Below, piece by piece: positions 22,188 to 44,815 of a stretch of 64,000 nt of DNA. The DNA comes from Micromussa lordhowensis (Eukaryota > Cnidaria > Anthozoa > Scleractinia > Lobophylliidae). The stretch is from assembly GCA_964020085.1 (NCBI GenBank), contig OZ026598.1:16168551-16232550 (forward strand), written 5' to 3'. The stretch's first letter is position 1. Every line of letters starts with the position of its first letter. Under the pieces are notes generated by a model, which made no database searches, had not been told where the DNA came from, and saw only the letters and a program-made list of their open reading frames with translations. A program made the position numbers and the translations under genes.

Positions 22188-23825
22188 TCGAAGATTACGT
22201 TTTTTGAGGCAGTGGTTCATCTTTGATCTTCAGCCAAAAAATTTTAAAGTAGATATGAACAAGAAGTACTCAAAGAGAGGCTAAGTGCCACCTGATGGTC
22301 ATTAACTGTGCAGCGGAAGGAATCACTGTACAGACAGCGCGTTAGTTATCGATATCCACCGCGGACGGAAAAACAGGGAAAACCCCCGAAGTATGCTTGT
22401 ATGTTGGAGTGTTCGAAAAGCAAAGAAATCGCTGAAAGCTATTTTTTTACTAAGAAGCAGTAATGGCTCAAAAGTTAACGAAGCATTTTTCACTTTAGAG
22501 TCGAATTTACTAAGGCCAGTTTGACTAGATAATTTTTCCACCTTTAGACTGATAGGACATGTTACAGGTAGTTAGCTAGTTCTGTTAATTTGTACGTATT
22601 CACATAATCTCTGTCAGCCGGGGAACTGAAAAATCATATATGGCTGATAAGCTCTGATACTTGAACTTTCTCTGGGGAAAAGTGATATATCACTGCACTG
22701 CAATTAAGTTGGTAAGCTACAAATAAGATTAACTACTTGTACTTATAATTATCCCATCTGATATGAACCTGCCGAATCGATTAATTCGCTTTGAAAGGTT
22801 GACTTTATTACCTTTTATCGAGCTTTAACGTTAGATATTAGAATTTCAAAATTGAATTATTTTTTTCTCAAAAAAAGCTATAGCATTTTGGCTCACTCCT
22901 CTGTCACCTTTACGCATTCCAGTTCGGCTGAGAGAAACCACAAAGTGGTCAAAAAGCAGATTAAGAACTAGAATATTCCAAGCAAATATTTCAAAGAATC
23001 TCAGTATAATGGTAAGTGGTTCGGATTAACGTATTATCTGTTATATCTAGCAGCTTTTATTCGAGACATGTAAAGATGTGCGTATGAGATACACACACAT
23101 CTGCAGTATCATTCAGAAAGGTAGAAACCCATAAATGACCATAAATTGCCCTGAGGCTTGCAAATAATTAATTGTCTGTTCTGGAAACATTCCAGCAAGA
23201 TTCCTTTCACCTTCTGCGTGTTTCATAATGATAACTTTGACAATTTTCACAAGTACAAAATGACTTGGCAACAGACGTCTTCTTTTTTGACCGGCCTCAG
23301 ATTTGAAAAGAGATAAATTGATTTGAAAACGCCACGCCGGTAAACCCCAGTTTTCAAACATAAACCGTTTACAGCTACTTAGCCTTGGCATCTGATAAAT
23401 TGTAACATCTCAAGGGCTTAATAGCATCCAGTGTGACAAAGCCGGCGTAACTTGAAATACGCGAATTATTCCGCCATTCAAGTGTCCATTTTAAGCTTGA
23501 CAATTTCAAACGTTGGGCCCCTTAGTTCTCCAAGAGTAATATTTACACATCCGTCTTTGTTGGGGGTCTATTGATGGAGGATAAAATGCTTTTCTAATAG
23601 CACAGGCTTTATTTACATGTCTATAATCGTCTCTGTCTTTTTGTTATTAATTAGCCGGCAGGCCCTGATGCGATCTTTGTCTTTCTTACTCTGAATTTCT
23701 TAAGAACCGGGTTGATAGGAGTGATGACCAGTTTTTAGAGTCTTGCCAGCAGCTCCATATAATCCTGATAGTCAGTAGTACCACCATTTATTAATGGCCT
23801 TGACTTGCACAAAGAACGACGAGAG
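22188..23825. other. Intergenic stretch, no gene recognised
   Basis: No supported coding region. The last 90 bases (from about 23733, CAGTTTTTAGAGTCTTGCC) are the 3' flank of the gene at 23826-24128 and are duplicated at 36985. Confidence 0.45.
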
Positions 23826-24128
23826 TTAAAATTCAGTATCTTCAATAACCAAGACTTTGATCTTGCTATCGTTGATGGTGTACTCTTTTAGAGTCAACTC
23901 GTCTTGATGTAGTAGAATCTGTAAGAGTACATCGATGGCTTCAAACTTGCATTTCAACCTGTTGTCTTCCACTGGAGGAGAAAGACTTTCACCAGGCGTT
24001 CTCTCGACAAAGAGCTTTTCTTGAGGACTTGCACGGGGTCCTGTTTGCGTAAGTTCATTCTCAGACGTTACAGCTTCGACTTCTCGTTTTGCGAAAGAAG
24101 AAGAGCGACGACGAAATGATTTCATCAT
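23826..24128 (-). CDS. Small protein with PDZ-ligand-like C-terminus (family member B)
   Basis: Intronless frame of 100 residues; the start is either of two adjacent ATGs (MMKSFRRRSS). The N-terminus is basic and serine-rich, and the middle is acidic and proline-containing without membrane segments. The C-terminal module is IDVLLQILLHQDELT, then LKEYTINDSKIKVLVIEDTEF and stop. It is closest to the member at 50862 in the module but unrelated to it in the first 60 residues. T-E-F at the end fits a class I PDZ ligand. Its 3' third plus 3' flank was copied to 36985-37171 and decayed there. Function unknown. Confidence 0.65.
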   Translation of the reverse strand: MMKSFRRRSSSFAKREVEAVTSENELTQTGPRASPQEKLFVERTPGESLSPPVEDNRLKCKFEAIDVLLQILLHQDELTLKEYTINDSKIKVLVIEDTEF

Positions 24129-36593: not shown

Positions 36594-36930
36594 ACAAGTT
36601 TGATATCTGACTATATGAAAAGCTGAGAGTTATTTATAAACCACTGGTTTACTGTTTTGCCGTTGGGGAGGGTCACAATTTTTTTATTTGAGTTTTTGGA
36701 GGGTCAATTTTTTTTTAAATTCTTTATGGGGGAGAGCCACAACTTTTTGGCAAAACGTTTTCTCAGTTTAGTGGCCCTCCCCCCCCCCCGGAGGGCGGGG
36801 AGGTCCCTTAAAGATGGCGTCCTGAGGCAAACACGTGTACTTCACTGAAGATTACTTTAAACTCAGATTACTGGACTCAAACTGCAATCAATTATGCCAG
36901 TCTTGAATTCACTGTTATAGACCGCTAAAA

Positions 36931-36977
36931 ATGGCGATAAGTGTATCATCTTGGTATAAACTGCTGTGGGGAGTTTT
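36931..36977 (+). pseudogene. Truncated third copy of a repeated first exon
   Basis: ATGGCGATAAGTGTATCATC, followed by TTGGTATAAACTGCTGTGGG, matches the start of the exons at 37196 and 43324. It breaks off before the splice donor, where a fragment of the gene family at 23826 begins. Confidence 0.5.
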
Positions 36978-36984
36978 AACGGTG

Positions 36985-37171
36985 CAGTTTTTAGAGTCTT
37001 GCCAGCAGTTCATAATAATCCTGATAAAAACAGCAAGTCAGTAGTATCACCATTAAACTTAATGGCTTCGACTTGCACAAAAAGCAATTAGAGTTAAAAT
37101 TCAATATCTTCAATAACCAATACTTTGATCCTGCTATCGTTGATAGTATACTCTTTTAGAGTCAACTCGTC
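36985..37171 (-). pseudogene. Fragment of small PDZ-tail gene (copy E of B)
   Basis: A copy of the last 26 codons and about 110 bases of 3' flank of the gene at 23826-24128. On the minus strand it reads DELTLKEYTINDSRIKVLVI, then EDIEF and stop at 37094-37096. The conserved threonine two residues before the end has become isoleucine, destroying the PDZ-ligand pattern. Similarity stops abruptly at 37172, next to the tandem duplication. Confidence 0.75.
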
Positions 37172-37686: not shown

Positions 37687-37793
37687 CATGGGCAGAAATT
37701 TTGGACAGTCAGCGGTTTATGACGCGGGCTCTGTTCCATACGCTTCGACCCTACTGAGTCTGCGCAGTTTGATTATGAAACAACGGGAAAGAA

Positions 37794-38711
37794 ATGACGA
37801 AAATTTCGTTTTATAAATCGCTGAATGATCTCAGTACCGCGGATTTTTACACGGAGAGAAAGAAAAAAGCATCTAGATTCTACGAGATCGAAAGAGTCGT
37901 TTCAAAAAGAGTCCATAAAGGAAAGGTAAGTGAATCTGCTTTGTTCTGAGTGTTTGATTGAAATGAATCTCTCTTTAATAAACGAATGCTCGTTTAATCC
38001 TGCTCAATCGTTGTTTTAGAATGAATACTTCATTAAATGGAAGGGCTACTCTAGCCTACAAAACTCCTGGGAGCCAGAGGAGAATTTAAACGCCTTTGCT
38101 TTGGGGTAAGTTCTTAGGTGTGATTAAGAGCTTTATAATAAAAAAAAAACAGCAACTAACAAACAAATAAAAAACAGGAGAAATCTCTTACATTGATTTT
38201 CTCTGTTGATATTTTTTTACCTGTATGTAATCATTTCTTATTTCATTTAAAAATTAAATTACTTTTTTTAAGATGAATATTTTTTCCTACCCTTAGGTCA
38301 TTCAACAACCCAAGACTCACACAGCAGGAGATTGCTGATGCCAGTGAGGGCCTTCACATTGGCATTTTAGAGCACTTAAAATCCAAGTCTCAATTACCCA
38401 CTGTCATTGCTTTTAAACACACTCATTTTAACTTTTTGTTCAAAGGCAAGGGACGGAAAAGCAATGACAGGGGGTACATCCTCCTTGAAAAACAGGATTT
38501 TTTAAGATGCCAATTTCCTAATGGGTGGTACAGGCTAATTGATAGTATAGGGGATGGGGTGCAAATTGACTTTCCTGTCAAGGTCAGAATGTTTTTGTCA
38601 TGGAGTCCAAAGTCTCATACCTTGACAGGGGAGTCAATGACGCCATGCCCACGATATAGGCCAGAAAAGTTGAGTATTTCTTTTTGCAAAGCAGCTTGTA
38701 GCCTGACATGA
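37794..38711 (+). CDS. Chromodomain protein of the transposon
   Basis: Three exons, 37794-37925, 38020-38105 and 38297-38711, with GTAAGT/GTAAG donors and TTTTAG/CCTTAG acceptors, give 210 residues. Residues about 29-72 are a chromodomain: FYEIERVVSKRVHKGKNEYF continues into IKWKGYSSLQNSWEPEENL. The aromatic positions expected for methyl-lysine binding (Y near the start, W of IKW, W of SWEPE) are present. The rest (GLHIGILEHLKSKSQLPTVI and onward) has no recognised domain. It starts 107 bases inside the left inverted repeat and faces the transposase-like gene, with 318 bases between the stops. Inference: it may tether the element's integration machinery to marked chromatin, as chromodomains do in some retroelement integrases. 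Confidence 0.75.
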
Positions 38712-39029
38712 GACAAGTGAAAGAAACCAAGACTTTATTTGATTCTGTTTGGTATTGTGTATTTCTTACAAAATAGAAAAAAATCTATATTTTTTTTAGT
38801 AGTTCATTACATATTGCCATATTGATATAAATTTTTTTATATTTACAACCTAGAAATGCATGCAGTATGCAGGCTGTTTTACAAATTGTTAAGTTAGCAT
38901 AAAGGACACAAGAGTATACCTCCTTTTTGACATCAAATGCCTGCTTTAATTTTCAGTGAAGCGATCGTCTACTGAAACCACCCTAAGTATATACATGTAT
39001 GTTACAACTCACTTAAGGTAAACTAAGTT

Positions 39030-41510
39030 TTACTCGAGTTCTTCAGGATCAAATGTTGTTTTTCTTTTCTTGCTCCTTGCCTCAAGGAGATCTTTTTCCC
39101 AGTATTCTGTATTAGATTTATGATAGGGTCTTTTCTCCCGATCTGATTTACGTAGTGCCCATTGTCTGGCTTCAACTTTTAGGACATCTGAGGCAGCATC
39201 CCATTTATTTGATTTACGCAGTACAATGTTTCTTGCATAATCATTATTTTTTTCTACACCTTGCCCTGTGAAAATTTTTACAGACTTGTGAGCCCTCAAG
39301 AACTTGGGGATATGAAACACCATGGCATGGATATAAGGTGTTATTCGTGCACGTTCATAGCCCTTTCTTTTGTTTCTTAGAGAAATAAAAAGGTTTACCC
39401 AGCTTTTAGCCTTTTCAAAAAAATCTGTAATTTGCCCATCTGAATTTTGACCACTTCCAATAAATGTATATAGTTCCCTAAAGTCTTCCCATATTTTCTT
39501 GACTGTATTTGAAGTTGGAGTCTGAACAACATTTAAAATTTTGCTTGGAAGTTCTCTTAAGAGTTGCTTTTTGTCATTACCAAGCAAACTTGTAAAATCA
39601 TAGGTACCTGATCCCTTTCCATCAGCATTGGTTTTCTCCCAGATATCAAAACTAACCCCACATGAGCGTACTGCAGCCTGCAACCTCTCTCGATGAACAC
39701 CTTTCTTTTCTCCCTTTTTCTTATTTATATCATCTCTCATGTCCCACTGTATTACATCCTCCAGTAAATTGTTTAGCAATACATCAACTACTCTAAGTAA
39801 AAGATGCAATTCATCCAGAATTACATGGTCTAACTCAATATTCAATAAAGGCTCATGTTCACAGCAATAATTTTCTTTGCTCTTTTTTGAGAATGCCTTT
39901 AGTTCTCTTAAGGTTCTTTGTAATGGTGGCTTATTGTAATAGTCTTCCTCATAGTTCATATCCCATCTCTTATCTTTATGAACTTTGCACCAGGCACAAG
40001 CATAGAATGAGGTGGCACCTTTAAGACCCAACATGATTAAAATGAATTTATAATCTCCCCCCAAAAAGAATTCAAGTGCTATTTCTTTCCCATTAATTGT
40101 GATTTTGTTCCCTGAATTTAGATCATTTATATCTGAAAAAACATTCGCAAATGACTCTTTGAGTGTTTCATATTTCTCTGAACCCTTGACAATGGCAATT
40201 GTATGATTTCCCCTCGCAGACATTAAATCACTGTTATTTTGCAACAGAGCAAAAGAAAGAATGATAAAACTAGTATTGCGAGTCATCCTCGCCCCATCCC
40301 CTGATATTTTGACTTTTACACTTTCATTTTCAAAATCAAATTCTGGATTTTGGTTAATGAAATCTTGCACTCTTTCATTGAGAAGTTCCTTGAATGAAAC
40401 TTCTGCACCCTCAGCTTTCCCAGGTGTGGATATAATATGGCACATGTCATTTAGCTGTGTTCGCCGTTGCTTGATAAGATAAGATTTTGGAAGATCATCA
40501 TTAAGCATGGAGAGCTCATGATAAAATGAGTCTCCTACACAAAATTTATCTAAAAGAAATAAAATTTGTTCCACTTTTTCCTTTTCCTCTTCTGAAAGGG
40601 AGCCAAGCCCTGTAGCAGTGTTCTCTTGTTGCTCAGCACTGGCCATTGTTGCATTGTGTTTGCTTCCAGTCTTGATTTCTTTCATGGCAATAGACTCGAC
40701 TTCCAGTCCAAAGGACTTAGCAAACCACAGTGCTGTCTGAGCTCTTGTCATGAAAGTCTTCAAAGTTCTTGACTTTTTCTTTGCCTCAGAAATGTCCTTT
40801 CCCTTGTAGTCTTGCTGAGCTCTCTGTATGAGTTCAATGTAATCGAGTAACTCTTTATTTGTGGTCTCAGCTTTTTCTACATCATTTTGAAGTGTTCTTA
40901 TCTCAGCTTGCATTTCCTGAAACATCACTCTCTTTTCTTCCTCCAAATTTGCATAGTTTGATTTCCACTCTTCTATTTCTTCATGCAGGGAAGTGTTCAA
41001 CTCCCTTAGCTGTTCATTTTCCCTCTCCAGCTCTGCCACTGATTGAACATGCCTCTCAAACACATGGAACTTTTTTATTTTCGAGTTCAGGGCTTGGCCC
41101 TTTCTCCCCCTGATCTGCCTGTATTGAGAATTCACAGAGGAAGCTAATTTTCGCAGGGATTCATTCAACTCTTTTCTCACTTCATCCGATTTTTTGATAG
41201 AAAACAGATTGTCAGGGATAATAAGCTCAAACAAGTCAGTGTAAGTCTTGTACTTTTTTCTCATACGTTGCTGAAATAGTTCCCATCTGATCGGACCTTC
41301 CGTTAACTCACCATCTACGTGTTCTTCTTCCTCTGCCTCTTCATTTTTGGGTTTATCAAGGAATTCATTCCAAGCTTTAAGCATGGGGAAAGGTATGTCA
41401 AAAGTAAATGCAACATTTTCTGCCATTGACTGTGAGACATATTTCAGCGAAGGAGGTTGTGGTGCCAATTTAGTATTAAATATATAGTCGGGAGGACGTA
41501 CGTCCGACAT
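39030..41510 (-). CDS. 826-residue transposase-like protein
   Basis: One uninterrupted exon. Residues about 30-170 are charged; 165-250 are a strong coiled coil (ELERENEQLRELNTSLHEEI). From about 395 follows a conserved catalytic-looking domain: VKISGDGARM (residue ~404), ALEFFLGGDYKFILIMLG (~486), a CAWC knuckle (~508), ELDHVILDELHLLLR, and near the C-terminus FTGQGVEKNNDYARN (~753). The D, D and E in these blocks are candidates for a DDE triad. The tail is basic (SKKRKTTFDPEELE). The motif set is familiar from repeat-borne proteins of cnidarians, but I cannot assign a named superfamily. Its integrity and its place between matched termini suggest a recently active element. Confidence 0.7.
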   Translation of the reverse strand: MSDVRPPDYIFNTKLAPQPPSLKYVSQSMAENVAFTFDIPFPMLKAWNEFLDKPKNEEAEEEEHVDGELTEGPIRWELFQQRMRKKYKTYTDLFELIIPDNLFSIKKSDEVRKELNESLRKLASSVNSQYRQIRGRKGQALNSKIKKFHVFERHVQSVAELERENEQLRELNTSLHEEIEEWKSNYANLEEEKRVMFQEMQAEIRTLQNDVEKAETTNKELLDYIELIQRAQQDYKGKDISEAKKKSRTLKTFMTRAQTALWFAKSFGLEVESIAMKEIKTGSKHNATMASAEQQENTATGLGSLSEEEKEKVEQILFLLDKFCVGDSFYHELSMLNDDLPKSYLIKQRRTQLNDMCHIISTPGKAEGAEVSFKELLNERVQDFINQNPEFDFENESVKVKISGDGARMTRNTSFIILSFALLQNNSDLMSARGNHTIAIVKGSEKYETLKESFANVFSDINDLNSGNKITINGKEIALEFFLGGDYKFILIMLGLKGATSFYACAWCKVHKDKRWDMNYEEDYYNKPPLQRTLRELKAFSKKSKENYCCEHEPLLNIELDHVILDELHLLLRVVDVLLNNLLEDVIQWDMRDDINKKKGEKKGVHRERLQAAVRSCGVSFDIWEKTNADGKGSGTYDFTSLLGNDKKQLLRELPSKILNVVQTPTSNTVKKIWEDFRELYTFIGSGQNSDGQITDFFEKAKSWVNLFISLRNKRKGYERARITPYIHAMVFHIPKFLRAHKSVKIFTGQGVEKNNDYARNIVLRKSNKWDAASDVLKVEARQWALRKSDREKRPYHKSNTEYWEKDLLEARSKKRKTTFDPEELE

Positions 41511-41841
41511 TGTAAATGCTTTAAATGATTACGAAACTGGAGAGTTAAGGTGTTTCATTTTTTTATTGCAAAATAGCAGATTAAGACCGGAAAGAAATGA
41601 GAAACTTGCATCACGTTCCTCAAATCGGAAGTCACGCAACTATGTCACGGAAAGGATGGCGTCACGGCAAACACAGTTATTGTTTAACATCACCCTTCAA
41701 CCAATCAGTTTTCTCTATTTCTATCATCTGACCGATGTAAACAAGCTAAGATACCAAGCCTCTGAAAGTAAAATGGCGTCGGAAACGACTTGTACGGGAA
41801 GAACCTTCGATCCAACTTCTACGATATCCTTTCTGCGTGAC

Positions 41842-42262
41842 TTACGGCAAAAATTCTTTTGGCGATGAATACCACAAATCTTCAACTTTTCGAGGATCAA
41901 AGAGAATGCCACATTCATTCCAAAAAGTGACACAAAATGAGAGATACGAGACCCCTGTTCGTAGCACGATGCTCGCAACTTACCAGCAGCGTCTTCTTTC
42001 TCGGATGTGCCGGGTCGAAGTTTGGCTATTTCAGCCAATTTACTGTGTTTGTATGGAAGAGCAATATGACTCTTATATGAGATTTGCGTAATTTGCTCGG
42101 GATCAAAGACGAAACGTGTGTGAACCTAGAAATTTCGTCCAAAGCAACAACTCGCAAACACGATAACACACCGATGCTCGCAGGTACGAAAATTATTTTC
42201 ATTTGGTTTAATTTTTTTAGTTTTAGTTTTTTCCCATACAAATCCTTAGAAGCTTCGGACAT
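41842..42262 (-). CDS. Small three-exon protein of the transposon, unknown
   Basis: Exons 42188-42262, 41984-42125 and 41842-41954 join in matching phases (0, then 1) to 109 residues. Exon 1 is basic (KKLKLKKLNQMK); exon 2 reads FVFDPEQITQISYKSHIALP and KLAEIAKLRPG; exon 3 has WNECGILFDPRKVEDLWYSS and ends at TAA. A GTAAGT donor overlaps that stop, so exons could alternatively continue towards the 826-residue frame, though I found no in-frame acceptor before its ATG. It lies just inside the right inverted repeat on the same strand as the transposase-like gene. No family recognised. Confidence 0.4.
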
Positions 42263-42330
42263 TTTTAAAGGGAATTAGAAAAAGCTCTGCGCATGCTTGG
42301 CCGCCATGATGTCCTAAATTTCTGCCCATG

Positions 42331-43315: not shown

Positions 43316-43912
43316 CCGCTTCAATGGCGGGAGATGTATCATCTTGGTTTGAACTGCTGTGGGGAAAGTCCAGTCGTTGGCTTCAATTGCAAGGAGAAAC
43401 GACAGGAAAGTTACTCCGCGTAAATTAGTTTGTGTCCCAAATGCTGCAAACCAGCACTGATCATGTCAGTGCAAAGTCAGCCGTCGAGACTTGAAATAAA
43501 TTGTCAAGTTACGATCACGTTCACCTTAGATAGTTAAATTTTCAAACAGGTAGTTTGTCCTACATAAGTTAAAGTTTACAGCTCTCTTTTTTCGATAAAA
43601 TGCTTCAAGAAATAATTATGAAGCGGAGAATGGTGAAAAAGCCGAATAAGTTGATTTGAAATAATCTCTTTGTATTTCTGTGAAGTTAGATAACTTGAAA
43701 TGTGAAAACCGGACCGATGATTTGATCTTTTAAGGGTGCTATATAACATCATCGTTCCGGTTGCTTGCTTTTGAAACGCTTTATAACAGATCGCAGACCA
43801 TCGACGGAGGAGTTAGTAGGTTAACAATTGTCACGTGATTTCCTCAAATCTTGAGAGCCTCGCTTCAAAACTTTCAGATTACGAATCACATTAATTAAAT
43901 TGCTTTTTCTCG

Positions 43913-43920
43913 TATAAAAA
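43913..43920 (+). promoter_or_regulatory. TATA box, duplication unit 2
   Basis: TATAAAAA in CTCGTATAAAAAGGAGCC, about 75 bases upstream of ATG 43991. A minimal ATG-TAA occurs between them (GCTACATGTAAC), which could act as a one-codon upstream frame. Confidence 0.5.
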
Positions 43921-43990
43921 GGAGCCTCTTTCTTTTCATTAGAAAAATTATATCAATATTTTAGCATTTGCTACATGTAACTGCACCAGT

Positions 43991-44205
43991 ATGGAATTTA
44001 GCGCTAGTGAACTTATGGAATATTATGAATCAGTAACGGGATCAATTCTAATATTGGATATTTTGTCCCACTTTTATTGGAAGTATTAATTTGTTTTTAG
44101 TGGAGTCGATTCGTCATTTATTACAACTTTAGTGAATACAACAATGGATGCACTTTTTTTGTCGGAGTCTTTTGTCGAGAGGACATTACAGTCTGCCCAG
44201 CTTAG
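43991..44205 (+). CDS. Possible small two-exon gene, unknown
   Basis: Exon 1, 43991-44032, encodes MEFSASELMEYYES and stops at a GTAACG donor. Exon 2, 44101-44205, after TTTTTAG, encodes WSRFVIYYNFSEYNNGC and VGVFCREDITVCPA to a TAG, giving 48 residues. In unit 1 the same stretch differs at three sites before a frameshift, and in this frame all three are synonymous (Arg, Tyr, Phe). The donor is weak and the product short, so this remains a candidate. No family recognised. Confidence 0.25.
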
Positions 44206-44415
44206 CGATGGTAAAAACGCTAAAAATATATCTAACGTTACGTTTGTCGACTACTCAGTGAATCGATAACCAATCAACGGCAAAGAAATACGCTGACTGC
44301 TAGTTACATTACTGGAAGTAGTTTGTTCTCCCTTGGAAATTAATCCACCTGTTTTCTGTTTTAGGGTGAAGACTCGATCCGCTGTTCAGTAGTTTTATGA
44401 AAATTATTCATGACA

Positions 44416-44604
44416 GCGCGGCTCCAGGGGAGGTGAAATGGGTGAATTTTCACCCTCCCCCCTTTTTCTGAGCCCCCTTCTAATTATTCACCGGAAATCA
44501 ATTATGGCTGATGCACAGACCTCAAACACCTCAACCAGGCTTTGGTTCTATTACATTATGACAAAAATTCACCCCCCATTTCAAAATCCTGGATCCGCGT
44601 CTGG
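44416..44604. mobile_element. Short insertion, probable MITE
   Basis: Present only in duplication unit 2. The left end AGCGCGGCTCCAGG and the inverted right end CCAGACGCGGATCCAGG share CGG-x-TCCAGG. The insertion replaces about 28 bases of the parent sequence rather than simply adding to it. Includes CACCCTCCCCCCTTTTTCTG. Confidence 0.5.
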
Positions 44605-44815
44605 AGCGATATTTCTATCGAATCAAATAATTTTAAATGATCTAATTTGCAGTTGAATTTTATTCTGGAAAGGTGCTTATTTGAATACGGTAATGTGCAC
44701 GTGTATTTCTCAATCACGAATTTGATGGCAGTCATCAAGAAAATGTATTTCACCTTTCCAGCCAACATGCCCCGGTGAAAACAATCACCTTCAATTGGCC
44801 ACAGACATTCCATAG

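What the first reader, a model, noticed from the sequence alone, without database searches (positions are those of the whole stretch)
37687..42330. A three-gene DNA transposon with an internal empty-site control
The element has 21-base inverted termini (CATGGGCAGAAATTT...) and carries a chromodomain gene, an 826-residue transposase-like gene and a third small spliced gene. The tandem copy of the target at 43815-43829 lacks it, so the ends are known to the base: GGGT before and TAACAATTG after, against GGTTAACAATTG uninterrupted. No flanking duplication is seen, unlike most cut-and-paste families; either the element inserts without one or CATG belongs to the target. I cannot match this layout to a named superfamily.
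Basis: partly seen in the sequence, partly recalled or inferred. Interest (0 to 1): 0.85.

Follow-up and report, generated by a model that had tools for sequence, protein, structure and literature searches.

The report
RAG1-like transposon with chromodomain partner gene
A jumping gene from a coral-like animal uses an enzyme predicted to be built like RAG1, the enzyme that rearranges our antibody genes, travels with a second gene that probably reads chromatin marks, and seems to insert without the short target duplication that most such elements leave.

The parts
37687..42330 (.). whole transposon, 4,644 bp
   Evidence: empty paralogue; same ends in other copies
37687..37707 (+). inverted terminal repeat, chromo side: CATGGGCAGAAATTTTGGACA, followed by the inner block GTCAGCGG that families 2 and 4 share
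42310..42330 (-). inverted terminal repeat, transposase side: CATGGGCAGAAATTTAGGACA, followed inward by TCATGGCGGCC, a block shared in form with families 2 and 4
37794..38711 (+). chromodomain partner gene, three exons 37794-37925, 38020-38105, 38297-38711 (210 aa)
39030..41510 (-). transposase, 826 aa, RAG1-type core at residues ~306-795
40296..40298 (-). codon of first catalytic Asp, D405
   Evidence: 137 of 137 non-gap rows
40053..40055 (-). codon of second catalytic Asp, D486
   Evidence: 137 of 139; aligned to RAG1 in a weak stretch
39987..39998 (-). zinc CxxC, C505 and C508
   Evidence: 140 of 140 each
39312..39329 (-). zinc HxxxxH, H728 and H733
   Evidence: 132 of 132; 130 of 131
39252..39254 (-). 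codon of catalytic Glu, E753
   Evidence: 126 of 127
43815..43829 (+). empty site in the tandem paralogue (43316-44803)

Best explanation
A two-gene cut-and-paste DNA transposon of a new lineage in the RAG1/Transib group. Gene 1 encodes a RAG1-core DDE transposase with an N-terminal coiled-coil region. Gene 2, tail to tail with it, encodes a chromodomain protein. Shown: the ends, the gene pair, the catalytic and zinc residues, a predicted RAG1 fold, and junctions without a direct repeat longer than 1 bp outside the CAT..ATG ends. Inferred: a transposase dimer pairs the two ends, which share an outer ~20-bp repeat but carry different inner blocks, as RAG pairs two unlike signals; it cuts by nicking and hairpin formation as RAG and Transib do; it joins to both target strands without stagger, so no duplication forms; and the chromodomain partner steers the complex to methylated histone H3, a role like that of the PHD finger of RAG2.
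Confidence: 0.7

Rival explanations
1. CATG is a palindromic 4-bp target that is duplicated on insertion, as TTAA is for piggyBac. The terminal repeat would begin GGCAGAAATTT, and the window paralogue lost CATG by chance or by imprecise excision.
For: All six two-ended insertions of families 1, 2 and 4 show CATG on both sides. At the C4 copy CATG continues the palindromic target.
Against: The window paralogue has no CATG, and an indel exactly there is unlikely (14 indels in 1,447 aligned bases). At the family-2 C2 insertion adding CATG breaks the RT frame. Family 3 has CATT at the matching place, inverted at both ends, which cannot be a duplicated target.
Confidence: 0.17
2. It is a member of a known CMCT lineage (Chapaev, EnSpm, Plavaka, ESTA or Lanisha) rather than a new one; the fold search ranks RAG1 first because those lineages have no solved structures in the list.
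For: The CMCT lineages share C(2)C and H(3-4)H motifs and mostly CA..TG termini (passages of PMC12730594), as this element does.
Against: CMCT lineages make 2-5-bp duplications and Chapaev has invariable CAC ends (passages of PMC4079192); here CAT and no duplication.
Confidence: 0.2
3. It is an ordinary Transib or RAGL element with changed ends.
For: RAG1, RAG1L and Transib are the closest folds, and the gene pair is convergent as in RAGL (for RAGL; here).
Against: Ends begin CAT, not CAC; no 5-bp duplication; the partner is a chromodomain protein, and no kelch or PHD gene was found in the element.
Confidence: 0.03

Closest known systems
RAGL / ProtoRAG transposons (RAG1L + RAG2L)
   Same: RAG1-type core; two genes in convergent orientation; the partner of RAG2 type and this partner both carry a putative histone reader; two ends that differ inside
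   Different: RAGL has CAC ends, almost always 5-bp duplications and a kelch-PHD RAG2L partner (passages of PMC7204232); here CAT ends, no duplication, chromodomain partner
Transib transposons
   Same: same core fold at lower Z (22.6 at best); zinc CxxC and HxxxxH
   Different: single gene, CAC ends, 5-bp duplications (passages of PMC7204232)
CMCT clade (EnSpm/CACTA, Mirage, Chapaev, Transib, Plavaka, ESTA, Lanisha)
   Same: C(2)C and H(3-4)H motifs; 5'-CA..TG-3' termini
   Different: 2-5-bp duplications in that clade (passages of PMC12730594); none here
Spy (PHIS group)
   Same: reported without target duplications (title seen in reference lists)
   Different: PIF/Harbinger-like transposase (passing statement in the abstract listing of PMC4482050), whereas this one has a RAG1-type core

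Membership tests
RAG1/Transib-type transposase core | RAG1 core fold | tested here: met
RAG1/Transib-type transposase core | DDE triad with CxxC and HxxxxH between second D and E | tested here: met
   141 sequences; alignments (first D by fold and pattern only)
Transib / RAGL | terminal repeats beginning 5'-CAC | tested here: not met
   CATG in families 1, 2, 4; CATT (or GCCATT) in family 3
Transib / RAGL | 5-bp target duplication | tested here: not met
   no direct repeat over 1 bp outside the CAT..ATG ends in 6 of 6 two-ended insertions; no 5-bp repeat with CATG counted as target either
RAGL | RAG2-like partner (kelch and PHD) | tested here: not met
   partner is a chromodomain protein by Pfam; the other ORFs of the element of 80 aa or more were listed but not all scanned
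RAGL | convergent gene pair | tested here: met
   window and 7 of 7 further copies
CMCT clade | 5'-CA..TG-3' termini and C(2)C, H(3-4)H motifs | tested here: met
CMCT clade | 2-5-bp target duplication | tested here: inconclusive
   none in families 1 and 2 by empty-site evidence; the CATG rival is not fully excluded; family 3 may have a 2-bp GC
CMCT clade | position in the transposase tree | not tested
   no RAG1, Transib or other CMCT sequences were at hand; the tree holds this family only
piggyBac | TTAA duplication | tested here: not met
   junctions
Spy / PHIS | PIF/Harbinger-type DDE domain | tested here: inconclusive
   no such Pfam family among the matches listed; absence from lists does not exclude

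The most novel reading that the evidence does not exclude
A new superfamily of animal DNA transposons, sister to RAG/Transib, with relatives of its transposase in Cnidaria, Porifera, Mollusca and Hemichordata. It inserts without stagger and so without target duplication, and it independently teamed a RAG1-type transposase with a histone-mark reader (chromodomain): a second evolution of the RAG1-RAG2 plan.
Probability: 0.5. Interest if true: 0.88.

Novelty: new variant of a known kind. Interest (0 to 1): 0.8.

Why it matters
RAG2 reads methylated histone H3 with its PHD finger (recalled), and how a RAG1-type transposase came to have such a partner is open. A related transposase paired tail to tail with a chromodomain gene in five families of one genome would suggest that such pairing arose more than once, perhaps for targeting. 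A RAG1-fold enzyme that joins ends without stagger would also be a test case for what sets the length of target duplications. The claims can be tested with public cnidarian genomes and a cell-based transposition assay.

Tried and rejected
Third gene: rejected; no ORF in the right-hand region is conserved beyond the terminal DNA in the three families compared. Relatives in viral contigs, prokaryote genome contigs and phage records: none found at the sensitivity used. The 15-mer hit on C10 was set aside because it does not extend. The right end of the C7 copy was not found in the 40 kb fetched downstream nor as an exact 15-mer on C7. Coral MITEs of PMC2872659 (passages) are TTAA elements, unrelated. 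The partner's C-terminal ~135 aa had no clear match, which does not show a new fold. Ends of family 5 (C8:4.92 Mb) were not found; only the inner block GACAGTCAGCGG was seen. Literature: ten searches of open-licence papers; among the papers listed I saw none that describes a RAG1-type transposon with a chromodomain partner, but I judged by titles and abstract starts, most subscription papers and Repbase Reports are not held, so earlier description is not excluded. A first tree failed on column handling and was redone; it holds no RAG1 or Transib outgroup and so does not place the family.

Full report
What is there. The window is part of contig C4 of a 581-Mb genome. The best named homologues are anthozoan cnidarians, so the host is probably a coral or close kin; this is inferred. 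At 37687-42330 lies a 4,644-bp element with 21-bp inverted ends (20 of 21 identical), inserted in the left copy of a tandem duplication whose right copy is uninterrupted. The joined window flanks read GGAGTTATTGGGTTAACAATTG; the empty copy reads GGAGTTAGTAGGTTAACAATTG: same length, two substitutions.

Copies. The left 514 bp has five matches in the genome, one only 55 bp long; the right 501 bp has six, two of which are parts of one copy split by a nested insertion. Together they make five copies: four with both ends (window, C5:32.03 Mb, C6:15.50 Mb, C4:3.56 Mb) and one (C7:20.70 Mb) with only the left end found. All nine ends read exactly CATGGGCAGAAATTT. The exact 15-mer occurs ten times in the genome; nine are these ends and the tenth does not extend. 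Of the five copies only the window's has an uninterrupted transposase frame; the other four carry frameshifts, stops or gaps.

The partner. The plus-strand gene of three exons encodes a chromodomain and a C-terminal domain of about 135 aa. The predicted proteins P0123 (Dendronephthya) and P0126 (Pocillopora) have the same layout. Of 60 hits the first 31 (E 2.1e-26 or better) stand apart from 29 general chromobox proteins (E 1.7e-8 or worse). P0123 and transposase P0017 (LOC114518939, LOC114518936) have the same longest-contig length, 3,293,897, as have P0126 and P0009, 36,597,280, so each pair probably shares a contig; distances are unknown. Residues Y30, W51 and Y54 lie where HP1 has its methyl-lysine cage (recalled). 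In this genome all seven stretches that I fetched downstream of other transposases (family 2: three copies; family 3: two; families 4 and 5: one each) encode the partner on the opposite strand, so the pair is convergent; the C-terminal domain was found in 7 of 7 and the chromodomain part in 6 of 7; the seven upstream stretches had no match. The protein search of the genome lists 61 matches (55 of 605 candidates scored); I examined flanks of seven copies only. Family 2 is C2/C15/C326 (49% identical transposase), 3 is C1:34.55/C4:23.05 Mb (44%), 4 is C8:30.19 Mb (52%), 5 is C8:4.92 Mb (54%).

The ends. Chromo side: family 1 CATGGGCAGAAATTTTGGACAGTCAGCGG, family 2 CATGGGGAGAAATCCGTGACAGTCAGCGG, family 4 CATGGCCAACAATTCCATACAGTCAGCGG. 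Transposase side: CATGGGCAGAAATTTAGGACATCATGGCGGCC, CATGGGGAGAAATCCGATACAACATGGCCGCC, CATGGCCAACAATTTCATACATCATGGCCGAC. So the outer part is shared by both ends of one element while the inner blocks are end-specific and conserved between families. Family 3 has GCCATTACCAGAAATCCGAG at both ends. The family-2 ends are supported by three copies (each end seen in two); those of families 3 and 4 by the inverted repeat of one copy each.

Target duplication. Outside CAT..ATG none of six two-ended insertions (four of family 1, one each of families 2 and 4) has a direct repeat longer than 1 bp. Whether CATG is itself a duplicated target was examined four ways. (a) The window paralogue has no CATG; an indel exactly there is unlikely, with 14 indels in 1,447 aligned bases. 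(b) The family-2 C2 insertion interrupts an RT gene: joined without CATG the flanks give one open frame of 181 codons through ...MYADDTN|VTFAASDMLGLETQINTEL...; with CATG a stop follows at the eighth codon. Pfam RVT_1 covers the join (E 8.7e-12), and the RT fragment in P0149 aligns through the join without a gap. No actual empty copy of this RT site was seen, since that search did not complete. (c) Family 3 has CATT at the same distance from the shared CAGAAAT, inverted at both ends and not palindromic, so CAT there is terminal repeat; whether its outer GC is repeat or a 2-bp duplication is open. (d) Against: the C4 copy sits between inverted arms of about 960-1,000 bp, 96% alike, and CATG would extend the palindrome by four bases. 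I take no duplication as the better reading, at about 0.8.

How it likely works. Shown: gene pair, ends, conserved residues, fold by prediction, junctions. Inferred from what is known of RAG and Transib: pairing of two unlike ends by a dimer, nicking, hairpin formation, strand transfer. Inferred here: strand transfer without stagger, and guidance by the chromodomain protein. The parallel with RAG2 would be functional, not ancestral.

What is known. RAGL elements have convergent RAG1L-RAG2L genes, CAC ends and almost always 5-bp duplications (passages of PMC7204232). PMC9435367 (whole main text) reports complete RAGL in corals, Fungia costulata and F. tenuis. TransibSU and Chapaev as Transib-superfamily clades: passages of PMC4411706; Chapaev ends and duplications: passages of PMC4079192. 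The CMCT group: passages of PMC12730594. This element meets the transposase and termini criteria of the broad group and fails the CAC, 5-bp and RAG2 criteria of RAGL/Transib. Hence new variant of a known kind, possibly a new superfamily.

Noticed in passing
L035 and L036 (C4:3594400-3600400 and 3556200-3562200): The C4 copy lies at the centre of an inverted repeat with arms of about 960-1,000 bp, 96% alike; the element is also split by about 29 kb of other sequence.
   Followed up: partly
P0149 (Paramuricea clavata): Predicted protein that runs from a reverse-transcriptase fragment straight into this element's chromo partner; perhaps a gene model merged across an insertion.
   Followed up: no
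relatives in alignment A1: 12 of 55 relatives match a SAP domain; in the three shown (P0105, P0104, P0113) it lies at the C-terminus. 6 of 55 match DUF1280 (best E 4.3e-5), which may hint that this family of unknown function is related to the transposase core.
   Followed up: no
36930-36972: A short partial third copy (43 nt, 86-88%) of the start of the tandem unit that holds the insertion.
   Followed up: no
36985-37171 and 23729-23903: A ~180-bp dispersed repeat, 85% identical between the two places.
   Followed up: no
P0007 (653 aa): A public protein listed as 100% identical to the query over 62% of the searched region; probably the same or a very near species, unnamed in the listing.
   Followed up: no
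G000:C2:35315557-35330204: Three identical-scoring transposase fragments at even spacing of about 6.9 kb, which look like a tandem array.
   Followed up: no
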